A stretch of DNA of 21,647 bases from a virus. The position numbers and the translations under genes are program-made. The stretch spans positions 1 to 21,647 of the IMG/VR virus record IMGVR_UViG_3300031707_000211; one strand, given 5' to 3'. Positions 6,225 through 11,008 of this stretch are shown here, piece after piece (the first letter of the stretch is position 1; every line of letters starts with the position of its first letter). A model generated the notes under the pieces. The model had not been told where the DNA came from, searched no databases, and was given only the letters and a program-made list of their open reading frames with translations.

Positions 6225-6619
6225 GCGGCCTCCTGGCCGGCCAGGAGCGGCCGGCGAGCGTCTTTGCGCACGCACCGCGTATCCTTGTGGTGGCTGCGGT
6301 CGTGGTGGAGGTGACACCACTGGCAGAGCGCCATCAGGTTCTCGTCGCGGTTGTCGGCGGGATCGTGGTTGAGGTGGGCGACGGTGAGGACGATGCGGAC
6401 GTGGCGCACACTCTTGCGGCCCCAGTTCCAGGGACTCCTACCGTCCGGGGCATACCAGTTGTCCGCGTGCCGCCATCCACCTCCCGACCGAGCCACGGTG
6501 GCCCGGTCGGGCACGTGGCAGTCTTCGCACTGGTTACCTGCGCGGGCCAGGATGCGCGGGCGGATGACGGTGCGCCACTCGCGGCCGTAGTACTGGCGGA
6601 GGTCAGGGCGGATGGGCAT
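6221..6619 (-). CDS. HNH endonuclease
   Basis: The protein has 132 residues, with GGAGG six bases before the ATG at 6619. The HNH fold is visible: zinc pairs C31-x2-C34 (CEDC) and C99-x2-C102 (CQWC), the first catalytic box VAHLNHD (80-86), the Asn of ENLMALC (94) and the final His cluster CHLHHD (102-107). Such nucleases cut one or both DNA strands and in phages aid packaging, replication or DNA invasion. It sits directly after the replication initiator gene, overlapping it by 17 bases, rather than beside the terminase, so a replication or host-DNA role is as likely as packaging. The closing RPLLAGQEAA looks disordered. Confidence 0.9.
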   Translation of the reverse strand: MPIRPDLRQYYGREWRTVIRPRILARAGNQCEDCHVPDRATVARSGGGWRHADNWYAPDGRSPWNWGRKSVRHVRIVLTVAHLNHDPADNRDENLMALCQWCHLHHDRSHHKDTRCVRKDARRPLLAGQEAA

Positions 6620-7610
6620 GGGGAACCTCCGGGTTGTGGGCCTCCCAGTGGAGGCCGGGGAACATGCGCAGGAGCTGCGTGCGCTGCTGTGCGGCGCAGG
6701 CGGGATGCGCCAGGATCTTCCGGGCGACGGCGACGGCGGCATCGCCGCTGGCATCGACCAGCTCGTCGAGCAGCGCGTCGTAGGAGGCCGGGCGGCCCAG
6801 GCGCTCCCAGGCCACCCGGCAGTCCTTGGCGAGCAGCGGGACGAACGGCCAGCTACGGACCTTGTCCCGCTTCAACTCGATGGCGGCCTCGAGGTCGCCG
6901 ATCGGGGCCTCGCCGAGGCACTTGGCGATGAGGTTCAAGACGGCCTGATCAGGCACCGAGTGCAGTTTGGCACTCAACGTGCGCTCAAGCATCGAGCGCA
7001 GATCGCCGTTCGGGGAGGGCGAAGACGAGGCGAACGATACCGGAACCCGGGTTCCGGTATCCTTCGCCTTCTGTTCGTCCGGGAGAGGGACGTTGGTCAG
7101 GCCGTCCGGCCCATCATAGACCTCGTGGACCGGGCATTCGGAGCCCAGCGGACAGGTGAGGACCACGGGCACCGGCGCTGCCGGCGCCGACTTCGCCGAA
7201 CGATCGAGGGTGCGGCTGGCTCTCTCAGGCAGGGCGAAGAGTCGCTGGGGTTCGACCGCGTAGCAGTACTCGCGGCCGCGTTTCTGGCGGCGGATGACGC
7301 CGAGACTATCGAGTTGGGCGAGGGCCTGGCGGACGCCGCGCGTGCTAAGCCCGGTCCAGCGCGCGAATTGCGTCTCGCTGATGGGCTCGGACATTTCCGG
7401 TGGCGCGGAGCCCGCAGCACGAGGTTTGCCGACGGTCTCCTCGAAAATGATGCCCAGGCAGAGGAAGGCCGCATAGTCGAGGCGGCGGCCCAGTTCGCGG
7501 AACAGGCCGCGCGGGACCGGCGTGTAGCCCTGCGCGGTCAGCCAGTCCGGAAGGCCTGTTGGCCGGCGCTCAGACACGGCCTCGAGGGGCTTCCGGGCTG
7601 GCGATGCCAC
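6603..7610 (-). CDS. RepO-like phage replication initiator (winged-helix)
   Basis: The protein has 335 residues. The N-terminal part matches phage replication protein O logic: GYTPVPRGLFREL (28-40), a helix containing IIFEETVGKP, then a winged helix-turn-helix (ETQFARWTGLSTRGVRQAL, 79-97, then LDSLGVIRRQ). A flexible, Pro/Ser/Ala-rich middle (125-205), with a C-x5-C, leads to a helical C-terminal domain (205-320) that could recruit a host helicase loader. No helicase or polymerase gene is visible, so host machinery is probably used. GTG at 7610 is preceded by AAGGAG nine bases upstream. The linker is encoded by a 40-bp palindrome (7029-7068), comparable to lambda, whose origin lies inside gene O. 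Confidence 0.75.
   Translation of the reverse strand: MASPARKPLEAVSERRPTGLPDWLTAQGYTPVPRGLFRELGRRLDYAAFLCLGIIFEETVGKPRAAGSAPPEMSEPISETQFARWTGLSTRGVRQALAQLDSLGVIRRQKRGREYCYAVEPQRLFALPERASRTLDRSAKSAPAAPVPVVLTCPLGSECPVHEVYDGPDGLTNVPLPDEQKAKDTGTRVPVSFASSSPSPNGDLRSMLERTLSAKLHSVPDQAVLNLIAKCLGEAPIGDLEAAIELKRDKVRSWPFVPLLAKDCRVAWERLGRPASYDALLDELVDASGDAAVAVARKILAHPACAAQQRTQLLRMFPGLHWEAHNPEVPHAHPP
7029..7068. repeat. 40-bp near-perfect palindrome inside the replication gene (candidate origin site)
   Basis: The central 26 bases (7036-7061) are a perfect palindrome made of GATACCGGAACCC and its complement. One mismatched pair (7035/7062) separates it from outer arms GGCGAA (7029-7034) and TTCGCC (7063-7068), so 38 of 40 positions are symmetric. 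The core ACCGGAAC-N4-GTTCCGGT is the one repeated three times at 7951-8019. It encodes D184-V191 and flanking residues of the initiator's linker. Confidence 0.85.
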
Positions 7611-7671
7611 GGGCCCATTCTCCTTCTCCCGGCCCGCAACTTCCGATAACAGATAGTGTGTCTGAAGCCCC

Positions 7672-7890
7672 TCAGGCCGGGGGTTTGGGCTTCAGAGCCG
7701 CCTTGCGGCGGAGACGACAGTCAGGGCACTCGCAGTAGCGACCGACGAGGTGCTTGCGAGTGCGTGGGCGGCCGCCGCGGCAGTGGCGGACGGCTGACTT
7801 TAGGAGGCGAGCGGCCTCGCGTACTCGGGAGCGAGGCCGACCGGTGCGTAAGGTGCGGGCAGCCTCAGCCAGGGTTAGAGGAGCCCGCAT
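7672..7890 (-). CDS. Small basic Cys-containing protein heading the replication operon (72 aa)
   Basis: The protein starts MRAPLTLAEAARTLRTGRP and is very rich in Arg and Lys. A first helix (LTLAEAARTLRTG) is followed by EAARLLKSAVRHCRGGRPRT (about 25-44), a C-E-C-P-D-C cluster and a basic tail. The middle segment is shared with the gene at 3569-3760. The ATG at 7890 has no convincing ribosome site, and a TTGACA promoter lies so close that the mRNA may be leaderless. As the first gene beside three palindromic sites it is a candidate autoregulator, but DNA binding is inferred only from charge and position. Confidence 0.65.
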   Translation of the reverse strand: MRAPLTLAEAARTLRTGRPRSRVREAARLLKSAVRHCRGGRPRTRKHLVGRYCECPDCRLRRKAALKPKPPA

Positions 7891-7897
7891 GTTTCTG

Positions 7898-7927
7898 ATT
7901 TAAGCGCAAAACTACGAAACATGTCAA
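7898..7927 (-). promoter_or_regulatory. Leftward promoter of the replication operon
   Basis: On the - strand TTGACA (7927-7922) is followed after 17 bases by CTTAAA (7904-7899), or after 18 by TTAAAT (7903-7898). The surrounding A+T-rich sequence stands out against the GC-rich background. The -10 box ends only 7-8 bases before the ATG at 7890, so transcription would begin at or next to the start codon. Confidence 0.6.
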
Positions 7928-7950
7928 GAAGTATTTTTAGTCGGGTGGAA

Positions 7951-7970
7951 ACCGGAACTGGAGTTCCGGT
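7951..7970. promoter_or_regulatory. Palindromic site 1 of 3 (operator or iteron)
   Basis: ACCGGAACT-GG-AGTTCCGGT is a perfect 9+9 inverted repeat. It is the best conserved of the three intergenic copies and lies about 24 bases upstream of the leftward -35 box. Confidence 0.8.
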
Positions 7971-7976
7971 GGGGAC

Positions 7977-7996
7977 ACAGGAACTGGGGTTCCGGT
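7977..7996. promoter_or_regulatory. Palindromic site 2 of 3 (operator or iteron)
   Basis: The site has a GGAAC-TGGG-GTTCC core (7980-7993) followed by GGT. One outer base of the left arm differs (ACAGGAAC). Its centre is 26 bases from site 1. Confidence 0.75.
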
Positions 7997-7999
7997 TGA

Positions 8000-8019
8000 A
8001 CCAGAACGGGAGTTCCGGT
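8000..8019. promoter_or_regulatory. Palindromic site 3 of 3 (operator or iteron)
   Basis: The left arm ACCAGAAC and right arm GTTCCGGT give an imperfect copy of the same site. Its centre is 23 bases from site 2. The right half-site is identical in all three copies, as expected for an asymmetric array of graded affinity. Confidence 0.7.
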
Positions 8020-8030
8020 CAGAGGGTGTC

Positions 8031-8046
8031 GTATCACTATTGATAC
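8031..8046. promoter_or_regulatory. Inverted repeat GTATCA-CTAT-TGATAC
   Basis: This is a perfect 6+6 repeat with a 4-base centre, unrelated in sequence to the three upstream palindromes. It overlaps TTGATA (8040-8045), a possible rightward -35 box without a good -10. It may be bound by a second regulator. Confidence 0.4.
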
Positions 8047-8070
8047 AGAATGAAGAAGAAAGGACATCCA

Positions 8071-8107
8071 GTGGGTGAGTGGGTGTTCCGGCAACCCACC
8101 CACCCAC
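8071..8107 (+). promoter_or_regulatory. Long stem-loop upstream of the late operon
   Basis: GTGGGTGAGTGGGT (8071-8084) pairs with ACCCACCCACCCAC (8094-8107) at 13 of 14 positions around the loop GTTCCGGCA. The 3' arm also belongs to a perfect palindrome ACCCACGTGGGT (8102-8113) that runs into TTTT. It may be an attenuator, a leader-RNA structure or a DNA cruciform. The loop contains GTTCCGG, the half-site of the nearby palindromes. Confidence 0.5.
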
Positions 8108-8222
8108 GTGGGTTTTCGCCTATACTTCTCCTATAGAGGGATGTGGGGATGCGCTGCGGGCGTGGGCGCACCAGCCCGCAGAGGTCTGCAGGCGTCGTCG
8201 GCTCGCGACGACGTATGGTGGC

Positions 8223-8696
8223 GTGCCGAAAAAGATCTCACGGCCGGCGAAGGCTCGTACCACGGCCAGGCGGCGCAAGATCGCGGCGGGGCTCGTGGCA
8301 GGCAAGGCCGTAGCGGAAGTGGCGCGCGAGACGGGGATCTCCCGGCAGTGGGCGTCGCGGGAGGCGCAGCAGCCGGAGACGCAGGTGGAGTTGGCTACCT
8401 TCCTGGCCGAGCACCAACTCGCGCTGCGCGGGCTGGTGGCGCGCGCGGTGAGTGTGATCGGCGAGGGGTTGGGCGCCACAAAGGTGGTGGCGACGAAAGA
8501 GGGCGGCGCCCTGGATCTCGGCCCGGACCACTACGCGCGCCTGCAAGCGGTGAAGCGGTTGATTGAGTTAGTCACCGCCGGGCAGGCACGGGTCCCAACC
8601 GGCGGCGATCAGCCGAGCGATCCGACCCTCCTCACCATGGATCGCCTCCGAGCCGTCTTCGAGCGAGGCAACCGCGGTGGACCTCGACGAGCGTAA
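8223..8696 (+). CDS. Terminase small subunit-like protein
   Basis: The protein has 157 residues. A basic N-terminus (PKKISRPAKARTTARRRK) leads into a helix-turn-helix (GKAVAEVARETGISRQWASR, about 27-46), then helices with LAEHQLALRGLVARAV and the phrase LDLGPDHYARLQAVKRL before the C-terminus. This matches small terminase subunits that recognise phage DNA and hand it to the large subunit, and its place two genes before a clear large terminase agrees. The start is uncertain: the GTG at 8223 fits protein similarity but has no spaced ribosome site. A longer frame from 8079 would translate the stem-loop and is unlikely. It overlaps the sigma gene by 20 bases. Confidence 0.75.
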   Translation: MPKKISRPAKARTTARRRKIAAGLVAGKAVAEVARETGISRQWASREAQQPETQVELATFLAEHQLALRGLVARAVSVIGEGLGATKVVATKEGGALDLGPDHYARLQAVKRLIELVTAGQARVPTGGDQPSDPTLLTMDRLRAVFERGNRGGPRRA

Positions 8697-9219
8697 CGAA
8701 CTGGTAGTCCGGTACCGTGGGCTGGCCCGGCTGGTCGCGCTGAGCGTCAAGCGGCGCATGCCGCCGTGGATCGAGCTCGACGATCTGGAGGCCTGGGCCT
8801 TGGTGGCCCTCCTACAGGTGGCGGAGACGTACGATGCGGCGCGTGGCGTCCCTTTCCCGTGCTACGCCTGGCGGCGGGTGCGTGGAGCCGTGTGGGACCA
8901 CTACCGGCGGTCGCACTACGCTGAGGAACTCGCACCCCGGATCGGTGTTGGGTCGTCGGGGGCAGTTGAGTACCCGACCGTGGATGAAGACCTGGATCGG
9001 CAGAAAGAACGCGCGCTACTCGCCAGGGCGTTGGCGACGTTGCCGGCGCGGGATCGGGAGTTGGCGCGGCTCTACTACACCGATGGACTGTATTTGAAAG
9101 CGGTAGGGAAGCGCCTCGGGGTGAATGAGAGTCGCACCTGCCAATTGAACAAGCGGATGTTGGTGCGCATGCGCCGAGCGCTCGAGCAGGCCGGGTACTC
9201 CAGGACGGCGACAGGCTGA
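8677..9219 (+). CDS. Phage RNA polymerase sigma factor (sigma-70 family, FliA/Xpf-like)
   Basis: The protein has 180 residues. Region 2 spans about 9-80: VRYRGLARLVALSVKRRMPP, then ELDDLEAWALVALLQVAETYD (split after ALVALLQ when aligned) and a YAWRRVRGAVWDHYRR promoter-melting helix. Region 4 spans about 115-170, with LPARDRELARLYYTDGL and the helix-turn-helix LKAVGKRLGVNESRTCQLNK. Region 3 is short, making it small and FliA- or SigF-like. It lies between the two terminase genes, recalling Xpf beside xtmA/xtmB in PBSX, and so probably directs late transcription. GAGG lies eight bases before GTG 8677. Its TGA lies in the REP-like hairpin at 9210-9234. Confidence 0.85.
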   Translation: MDLDERNELVVRYRGLARLVALSVKRRMPPWIELDDLEAWALVALLQVAETYDAARGVPFPCYAWRRVRGAVWDHYRRSHYAEELAPRIGVGSSGAVEYPTVDEDLDRQKERALLARALATLPARDRELARLYYTDGLYLKAVGKRLGVNESRTCQLNKRMLVRMRRALEQAGYSRTATG

Positions 9220-9234
9220 AGCCTGTCCCACGGG
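9210..9234 (+). repeat. REP-like hairpin, copy 1
   Basis: GACAGGCT-GA-AGCCTGTC followed by CCACGGG. It supplies the sigma factor's stop codon and fills most of the gap before the large terminase. It is related to copies at 15566-15590 and 16225-16248, with compensating base changes in the stem. Confidence 0.7.
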
Positions 9235-9250
9235 CGCCGACAGTACAGTA

Positions 9251-11008
9251 GTGCCACTCACGCGGGCAGCGCTGGCCGAGGCCTACCGAGACTTCCAGGT
9301 TCACCGCACCTTTGCGGAGGAGTGTCTCTCCGTCCAGGACAAGCAGGGCCAGATCATTCCTTTCAGCTTCGCGCCGGCGCCGGAGAAGCTGCGGTTGGCG
9401 GTCGAGGAGCTGCGCAAGAAGCGGCAGCCGATTCGGATCATCTACCTGAAGGCGCGGCAGGTCTTCGTCTCGACGGCGACCGCGGCGCGGTTCTTCCACG
9501 AGATCCCCTTCCAGGCCGGTCAGAAGGGGATGGTAGTTGCGCATGACAAGGAAGCCGCCGAGGAGATTTTCGGTTACTACAAGTTCTTCCAGGAGAGCTA
9601 CCAGCCGTTCCGAGGCGTGATCGGCCTACCGAAGTTGAAACAGGACAACCGGGGCATCCTGCGGTGGGCCAACAAATCCTACATCAAGGTCTCCACCGCG
9701 AACAACGTGCGGAAGGGCCGCGCGTTCTCGCTGCGGTACCTGCACCTAAGCGAGTTCGCGTTCTGGCGGGACGCCCGGACGTTGATGGCCGCCCTGATGC
9801 AGTCGGTGCCCGACGATCCGGACACGATGGTGGTGGTCGAGAGCACGGCGAACGGGATCGGAAACGAGTTTTACCAGCTCTGGCAACGCGCGAACGACCC
9901 AGCGGGCGAATGCGAGTGGACGGCCATCTTCTGCGGGTGGTGGGAGCATCCGGAGTACCGGCGCGCCCTAGATGTGCCGGCAGACGAGTTCCAGCGCTCG
10001 CTCACCGATGAAGAGTACGAGCTGGCCGAGCGGTACGGGCTGAGCCTCGAGCAACTCAATTGGCGCGGCTGGTGCATCCGGAACAAGTGCGACAACAACC
10101 CCGACACCTACCGGCAGGAGTACCCCAGTTGCCCCGAGGAAGCCTTCCTATTCAGTGGCCGGCCGCGGTTCTCGCACGTTCATCTGGCGAGAATGCCGAT
10201 CATTCGGGACGCCCCGGTGGGCGAACTCGTGGAAGTCGCTCTGGGCCCGAAGACGCACATCCAGTTCGAGATGCGCCAGCGCGGCGCGGTCACGTTGTAC
10301 AAGAAGCCTGGGCGTGAGCGGTTGTACGTCATCGGGGTGGACGTGGCGGAGGGGATTGACGCGGCGGGACCGCAGGCCACAGGAGCGTCGGACCGGGACT
10401 ACACCGTCTGCACGGTGCTCGATCGAGACACCGGAGAGCAGGTCTGCAAACTGCGGGCTCGGTTGGAGCCGTCGCCGGCGGGAGTCTATCTGGCACTGCT
10501 GGCGCGGTGGTACAACTGGGCCTTTTTGGTGCCGGAGGCGAACGGCGCCGGCCTGGCGCTACTTACCGAACTTCAGCACCAGGGGTATCCGCCGGCGCTG
10601 ATCTACCACCGGCAGCCGCAGCCAGACGACCTGTACGCGCCGGAAGCGCACAACGTTCTGTCGCACCTCGGGTGGCTGACCACCACGGTCACCCGGCTCC
10701 AACTGGTGAGCAAGTTGGACACCGCGATCCGGGAGTTGGCGGTGGTGATCCGGGATCCGAACACGCTGGCAGAGTGCCGGACGTTCGTGGTCCATCCGTC
10801 GGGGAAGCCGGCGGCGCAAGCCGGCTGTCACGACGACGAGGTGTTTGCGCTCGGCCTGGGGGTGGTGGGGCTGGAGCAACCGCCGGCGGATGCGCGGTTG
10901 CTGGGGCTGAAGCGGCCAGCGCCACCCAGGAGCGCGGCCGGGGGTGCAGTCCGGTACGGGCGCCGCCGACGAACCACCGGAGAGAGGGCGCCGACGATCA
11001 GGCTATGA
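9251..11008 (+). CDS. terL: Terminase large subunit
   Basis: The protein has 585 residues and is the ATP-driven DNA packaging motor with a headful-cutting nuclease. Motor domain: Walker A-like KARQVFVST (67-75, with Phe where Gly is common), Walker B LRYLHLSE (161-168) and the coupling motif ESTANG (197-202). Nuclease domain: GVDVAEG (362-368), PEANGAG (428-434) and CHDDEVFALG (526-535), giving Asp364, Glu429 and Asp528/529 as metal ligands. Length fits the family. The start GTG at 9251 has no ribosome site, and no other start precedes it in frame, so translation may depend on sigma-gene coupling across the REP-like hairpin. Its stop overlaps the next ATG. Confidence 0.95.
   Translation: MPLTRAALAEAYRDFQVHRTFAEECLSVQDKQGQIIPFSFAPAPEKLRLAVEELRKKRQPIRIIYLKARQVFVSTATAARFFHEIPFQAGQKGMVVAHDKEAAEEIFGYYKFFQESYQPFRGVIGLPKLKQDNRGILRWANKSYIKVSTANNVRKGRAFSLRYLHLSEFAFWRDARTLMAALMQSVPDDPDTMVVVESTANGIGNEFYQLWQRANDPAGECEWTAIFCGWWEHPEYRRALDVPADEFQRSLTDEEYELAERYGLSLEQLNWRGWCIRNKCDNNPDTYRQEYPSCPEEAFLFSGRPRFSHVHLARMPIIRDAPVGELVEVALGPKTHIQFEMRQRGAVTLYKKPGRERLYVIGVDVAEGIDAAGPQATGASDRDYTVCTVLDRDTGEQVCKLRARLEPSPAGVYLALLARWYNWAFLVPEANGAGLALLTELQHQGYPPALIYHRQPQPDDLYAPEAHNVLSHLGWLTTTVTRLQLVSKLDTAIRELAVVIRDPNTLAECRTFVVHPSGKPAAQAGCHDDEVFALGLGVVGLEQPPADARLLGLKRPAPPRSAAGGAVRYGRRRRTTGERAPTIRL

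What the first reader, a model, noticed from the sequence alone, without database searches (positions are those of the whole stretch)
7951..8019. Array of three 20-bp palindromes between divergent early and late units
Seen: sites at 7951-7970, 7977-7996 and 8000-8019, centre spacings of 26 and 23 bases, with right half-sites identical and left arms drifting. They stand beside the only strongly A+T-rich stretch and between the leftward promoter and the late operon. Known: lambda OR has three operators spaced by about 23-24 bases between divergent promoters, and iteron origins also sit beside A+T-rich DNA. Inference: either a three-site genetic switch or an iteron origin.
Basis: partly seen in the sequence, partly recalled or inferred. 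Interest (0 to 1): 0.7.

Follow-up and report, generated by a model that had tools for sequence, protein, structure and literature searches.

The report
Phage replication origin with swappable specificity
The three palindromes are most likely the landing sites of the phage's own DNA-replication starter protein, forming an origin in front of that protein's operon; in sister phages the sites and the protein's DNA-reading domain have been changed together while the rest of the genome stays nearly the same.

Summary
In detail: three 20-bp palindromes, consensus ACCGGAAC-N4-GTTCCGGT, at the stated places. That gene encodes a winged-helix protein whose DNA-binding domain matches a profile built from 36 unrelated phage initiators (E=3e-10); the site lies in its disordered linker, where lambda O carries its iterons. 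In relative L027/L028 the linker holds five copies at 33-bp period plus three upstream. The array is conserved in all five distinct related contigs. Between near-identical phages (portal 94-99%) the palindromes and the DNA-binding domain are islands of divergence, and sites change where the recognition helix changes. Scanning IMG/VR for paired GGAAC-N4-GTTCC sites found the same design in dozens of unrelated initiators, with AT-rich DNA just 3' of the array. In the window's clade the in-gene sites lack that AT tract; the intergenic array has it, flanked by the window's most AT-rich stretches. Best reading: an O-type origin moved or duplicated into the promoter region. Initiator binding is well supported; origin function is inferred; autoregulation is the main rival. 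The lambda-OR-like switch is not supported.

The parts
7951..7970 (.). initiator site A (ACCGGAACTGGAGTTCCGGT)
   Evidence: aligned in relatives
7977..7996 (.). initiator site B (ACAGGAACTGGGGTTCCGGT)
8000..8019 (.). initiator site C (ACCAGAACGGGAGTTCCGGT)
7036..7061 (.). fourth site, perfect 26-bp palindrome GATACCGGAACCCGGGTTCCGGTATC in the linker-coding part of the initiator gene
   Evidence: present and co-varying in L004, L005; five copies in L027/L028
6603..7610 (-). O-like replication initiator, 335 aa: winged helix, disordered linker, helical C-terminal domain
   Evidence: PHROG replication initiation O-like; HMM of 36 unrelated initiators E=3e-10; low-confidence AF2 model
7254..7505 (-). 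part coding for the winged-helix domain (residues 36-119), the diverged specificity domain
7892..7951 (.). AT-rich tract (GC 0.35, lowest in the window) on the gene side of the array; candidate unwinding element, overlaps the leftward promoter
8011..8070 (.). second AT-rich tract (GC 0.433) on the far side of the array, with a conserved ATAnTGAT core
7898..7927 (-). leftward promoter-like TTGACA-18-TTAAAT; ATG at 7890-7888 follows at once, so the first gene may be leaderless
   Evidence: sequence
7672..7890 (-). 72-aa basic protein, first gene of the leftward operon; does not co-diverge with the sites
8071..8107 (.). hairpin GTGGGTGAGTGGGTG...CACCCACCCAC beside the array
   Evidence: z about -3 in the window and L004, weak (-1.1, -0.9) in L012 and L028
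7639..7655 (-). conserved 17-bp element TATCTGTTATCGGAAGT between the 72-aa gene and the initiator gene

Best explanation
The palindromes are binding sites (iterons) for dimers of the winged-helix, lambda-O-like replication initiator encoded by 6603-7610. The initiator fills the three-site array; in lambda such an assembly opens the neighbouring AT-rich DNA, here 7892-7951 and/or 8011-8070, after which the C-terminal domain would recruit the host helicase. Its relatives keep such sites inside the initiator gene; in this clade an additional cluster with the AT tract stands in front of the operon's promoter, so the working origin appears to have moved or been duplicated there, leaving one to five copies in the gene. 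Binding there may also couple replication to early transcription. The DNA-binding domain and its sites have been replaced together between sister phages, giving different replication specificities. Shown by sequence: site conservation, in-gene copies, co-divergence, AT tracts, initiator homology of the domain. Inferred: actual binding, unwinding, helicase loading, effect on the promoter.
For: (1) The same palindrome recurs in the array and in the linker of the initiator gene, with no further match to the site consensus in the contig. (2) Five in-gene copies at 33-bp period in L027/L028. (3) Array of three in every related contig at spacing 23+34/35, with an 8-bp deletion in the window. (4) Array and wHTH-coding DNA are about 65-80% identical islands in 90-98% identical DNA; wHTH 55-71% against C-terminal 90-96% identity, while window-L027 is the reverse (wHTH 71-73%, C-terminal 43%). 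(5) Half-sites resemble one another within a phage more than between phages, and change in the two phages whose recognition-helix Arg is Ala (L004) or Trp (L005). (6) IMG/VR scan: 46 of 47 ORFs with this wHTH hold the site pair, against 163 of 2998 ORFs overall; 8 of 10 sampled are PHROG replication-initiation proteins. (7) In unrelated initiators GC drops by about 0.11 in the 60 bp 3' of the array (31 non-redundant, p about 1e-4); in this clade the drop (0.20-0.29) is at the intergenic array and absent at the in-gene sites.
Against: The AT tract on the gene side is also the promoter, so it may be AT-rich for that reason. Unrelated initiators with exact sites have no second cluster outside the gene, so the intergenic array could have another role. 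No helicase or loader gene was recognised in the ORFs scanned. The C-terminal domain has no recognised family and its model is poor. No DnaA box near.
Confidence: 0.65

Rival explanations
1. Same binder, different job: the array is an operator with which the initiator regulates its own leftward early promoter (activation from -70 and upstream, or repression by looping to the in-gene site), while the origin is elsewhere, e.g. in the gene or beyond the contig.
For: The array lies 23 bp upstream of the -35 with conserved spacing to it; unrelated initiators keep their sites only in the gene, so the extra promoter-side cluster is a clade-specific addition; L027/L028 keep five in-gene sites.
Against: Three of the four phages whose initiator gene is known have only one in-gene site and no AT tract there, which would leave them without a recognisable multi-site origin; the array has the AT tract on the same side as other origins of this type.
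Confidence: 0.27
2. Lambda-OR-like lysis/lysogeny switch: three operators for a CI/Cro-type repressor between divergent promoters.
For: Three palindromes, about 23-26 bp spacing, between divergent operons.
Against: Sites also lie in the initiator gene and co-vary with its wHTH; sites do not overlap the leftward -35/-10; no repressor gene seen among the ORFs scanned, though the contig is a fragment.
Confidence: 0.04
3. The 72-aa basic protein (7672-7890) is the binder.
For: Adjacent, first gene of the operon, small basic protein.
Against: It is 94-97% identical where the sites diverge strongly; no DNA-binding family found.
Confidence: 0.03

Closest known systems
Phage lambda ori / O protein (and Stx-phage O; PMC7466680)
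   Same: Initiator dimers bind several iterons beside an AT-rich tract; iterons lie in the middle of the initiator gene, and extra iterons lengthen the protein, as with the five 33-bp repeats of L027.
   Different: Here only one in-gene site remains in three of four phages and the multi-site cluster with the AT tract is intergenic, in front of the operon promoter, about 0.95 kb from the in-gene site; site sequence differs; no P-like gene seen.
Bacillus phage SPP1 gp38 with oriL (inside gene 38) and oriR (PMC6316719)
   Same: One initiator, two separated site clusters, one inside its own gene.
   Different: In SPP1 both clusters have an AT-rich region and lie about 13 kb apart; here only the intergenic cluster has the AT tract and the two are about 1 kb apart.
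Mycobacteriophages phiGD21-1 gene 54 and IdentityCrisis gene 55 (HTH proteins)
   Same: Same recognition-helix motif (TTRAVRxA[LI]), same half-site ACCGGAAC, in-gene palindromes at 33-bp period right after the wHTH.
   Different: Different C-terminal domain; no promoter-side array seen in the near-identical IMG/VR prophages.
Lambda OR (CI/Cro operators)
   Same: Three palindromes between divergent operons.
   Different: Wrong binder class, extra copies inside the initiator gene, no overlap with the leftward -35/-10.

Membership tests
lambda-O-type phage origin/initiator | initiator with N-terminal winged-helix DNA-binding domain of the phage-initiator type | tested here: met
   PHROG O-like matches E 9e-5 to 1e-3; HMM of 36 unrelated initiators E=3e-10, only this ORF in the window
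lambda-O-type phage origin/initiator | multiple palindromic initiator sites within the initiator gene, in the linker after the wHTH | tested here: inconclusive
   one site in window, L004, L005; five in L027/L028
lambda-O-type phage origin/initiator | AT-rich tract adjoining the iterons | tested here: met
   met at the intergenic array (GC 0.37-0.45 against 0.65-0.66), not at the in-gene sites
lambda-O-type phage origin/initiator | protein binds the sites as a dimer and opens the DNA | not testable with these tools
   symmetry of the sites fits a dimer; needs EMSA, footprint, permanganate assay
lambda-O-type phage origin/initiator | partner helicase loader (P-like) gene next to the initiator | tested here: not met
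   next ORF downstream is an HNH endonuclease; loader function may lie in the C-terminal domain or the host; contig incomplete. For this reason it is described as working like an O-type origin, not filed as a lambda-type O/P system
lambda-OR-type switch | CI/Cro-like repressor gene flanking the operators | tested here: not met
   none among the ORFs scanned; contig is a fragment
lambda-OR-type switch | operators overlap the divergent promoters | tested here: not met
   sites lie 23 bp or more upstream of the leftward -35; rightward promoter not identified

The most novel reading that the evidence does not exclude
In a clade of Acidobacteria-associated phages an O-type origin has been relocated from the initiator gene to its promoter region, and the initiator's DNA-reading domain plus all its sites, in the gene and 0.9 kb away, recombine as one specificity module across otherwise near-identical genomes, creating replication-incompatibility groups that let sister phages escape origin decoys or resident prophages.
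Probability: 0.4. Interest if true: 0.68.

Novelty: new variant of a known kind. Interest (0 to 1): 0.56.

Why it matters
It gives a sequence-only handle on where uncultivated phages start replication and which protein reads the origin. Near-identical phages that differ in the recognition helix and its sites are a ready-made natural experiment on how initiator specificity evolves. Extra lambda origin copies block lambda (PMC4488673), and phages carrying the P22 replication genes escape a lambda-specific replicative block (PMC3349717), so such changes plausibly matter for competition between phages. The one-line pattern GGAAC-N4-GTTCC in pairs retrieved dozens of initiator genes from IMG/VR, with spacings clustered near 2, 3 and 4 helical turns and an AT-rich block just 3'.

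Tried and rejected
Pattern GACTAAAAATACTTCTTGACA in IMG/VR gave two unrelated chance hits, L007 and L009. First genome-contig scan with A2 found nothing; 396 genomes of the phylum of G004 gave only that element plus weak wHTH hits. No tblastn match of the initiator in INPHARED. Plasmid hits were repeat look-alikes. Rfam: nothing in 7000-9300. No DnaA boxes near. Foldseek on the AF2 model matched only generic wHTH regulators. The idea of point-by-point positive selection on the wHTH was dropped: pS is raised there too (0.54 against 0.28-0.39), which points to exchange of the segment by recombination. Conservation of the helix Arg alone is weak evidence of a recognition code, since from general knowledge it is common in winged helices; the weight rests on its loss together with the site change.

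Full report
OBSERVATION. The three palindromes are at 7951-7970, 7977-7996 and 8000-8019, spaced 26 and 23 bases. ACCGGAAC-N4-GTTCCGGT with up to three mismatches occurs four times in the window against 0.15 expected. The lowest-GC 60-bp windows of the whole record, 7892-7951 (0.35) and 8011-8070 (0.433, shared second place), flank the array on both sides.

THE GENE. ORF 6603-7610(-) has weak matches to three PHROG families called 'replication initiation O-like' (two of four family members match at E below 0.01). An AlphaFold model is good only for a winged helix (residues 36-119, pLDDT about 70-82), followed by a disordered linker (about 127-200) and a helical C-terminal domain (202-325). The in-gene palindrome encodes residues 185-191, in the linker. 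That is the layout of lambda O, whose gene carries the iterons in its middle beside an AT-rich tract (PMC7466680).

RELATIVES. Five distinct related contigs carry the array: the window, L004, L005, L012 and L027 (L028, an Acidobacteria MAG contig, carries the same sequence as L027). All have three palindromes upstream of a conserved TTGACA promoter-like sequence, spaced 23 and 34-35; the window has lost 8 bp between two sites. In L027/L028 the initiator gene carries five palindromes in tandem with 33-bp period (protein DTGTPVPVSAR repeated), plus the three upstream. In L012 the contig ends before the linker.

CO-DIVERGENCE. Window, L004 and L005 are near-identical phages (terminase 94-96%, portal 94-99%). 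Along the region, identity is 90-98% through the promoter and the 72-aa gene and in much of the C-terminal-coding part, but falls to about 65-80% in the array and in the wHTH-coding part. Substitutions concentrate in the palindromes (25 of 60 columns) compared with other intergenic columns (37 of 169; p=0.004), and the promoter side is nearly constant (6 of 60). Some changes in the in-gene site are compensatory, e.g. GATACCGGAACCCGGGTTCCGGTATC in the window and GATACCGCAAGCCGGGTTGCGGTATC in L004. Half-sites within a phage resemble each other more than those of different phages (this permutation treats half-sites as independent, so its p-values are optimistic). The protein shows the same mosaic: wHTH 55-71% against C-terminal 90-96% among sisters, but window against the more distant L027 is the reverse, wHTH 71-73% and C-terminal 43%, and window and L027 share the same site type. 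Synonymous divergence is also raised in the wHTH part, so the segment was probably exchanged by recombination. The 72-aa product does not co-diverge and is not the specificity partner.

SURVEY. All IMG/VR viral contigs were scanned with one pattern, two GGAAC-N4-GTTCC palindromes 5-35 bases apart (87 stretches, 80 loci). Of 2998 stop-to-stop ORFs in these loci, 47 carry the wHTH by a profile and 46 of these contain the palindrome pair, always after the wHTH (-1 to 98 aa). The profile was seeded from site-bearing ORFs, so the count is not blind. Eight of ten sampled ORFs are independently assigned to PHROG replication-initiation families. Centre spacings cluster at 20-24, 33 and 44-46 (65 of 147 at 33; many from similar mycobacterial prophages). 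A profile from 36 initiators without the window's kin finds the window's ORF at E=3e-10 and no other window ORF. In the unrelated initiators GC drops by about 0.11 in the 60 bp just 3' of the array and nowhere else nearby (31 non-redundant initiators, Wilcoxon p about 1e-4): an unwinding-element signature. At the matching recognition-helix position 31 of 33 distinct helices have Arg and two Lys; L004 has Ala and L005 Trp, and their sites have departed from GGAAC.

WHAT IS SPECIAL HERE. In the unrelated initiators exact sites are confined to the gene. In the window's clade the in-gene site(s) have no AT-rich 3' flank, while the intergenic array has one, on the same side and deeper (GC 0.37-0.45 against 0.65-0.66). 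The simplest reading is that the working origin now lies in the intergenic array, with one to five copies left in the gene. SPP1 is a precedent for one initiator with two clusters, one inside its own gene (PMC6316719).

RIVALS. The same protein could use the array to regulate its own promoter; the array sits 23 bp upstream of the -35 and the AT tract overlaps the promoter, so origin and operator are not exclusive. A lambda-OR switch is unlikely: wrong binder, extra in-gene copies, no repressor seen in the ORFs scanned. Not shown by any tool here: protein binding, unwinding, helicase loading, transcription effects.

STATUS. Initiator binding about 0.9; array as origin (alone or with autoregulation) about 0.65; co-exchange of domain and sites is a direct sequence observation for three phages plus L027. 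The survey pattern was limited to one site type; whether other site types follow other recognition helices was not tested beyond L004 and L005. Literature searched: held open-access library only; no paper describing this arrangement was found there.

Noticed in passing
7639-7655 (-): 17-bp element TATCTGTTATCGGAAGT between the 72-aa gene and the initiator gene is identical in all related contigs, once per window; role unknown.
   Followed up: partly
8071-8107: Strong G+C hairpin GTGGGTGAGTGGGTG/CACCCACCCAC next to the array, recognisable in all relatives; could be a terminator between the divergent units or part of the origin.
   Followed up: partly
7888-7903 (-): The -10-like TTAAAT is 7 bases before the ATG of the 72-aa gene, so the first early transcript is probably leaderless; the same in L012.
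   Followed up: no
8677-9219 (+): The late operon carries its own sigma-70-like factor (Pfam Sigma70_r2 and r4) after a possible small-terminase/late-activator ORF; it differs much between relatives (52-95%).
   Followed up: no
L063:10739-12010 (+), L066, L086, L100, L103: Pro/Thr-rich repeat proteins (TGTPVP) also contain paired GGAAC-N4-GTTCC by codon coincidence, so the pattern alone needs the wHTH check.
   Followed up: partly
L022:919-1713 (-): Relative L005's contig carries a 264-aa protein that looks like a RecB/Cas4-type nuclease and a 1481-aa ORF beyond the integrase; not searched.
   Followed up: no
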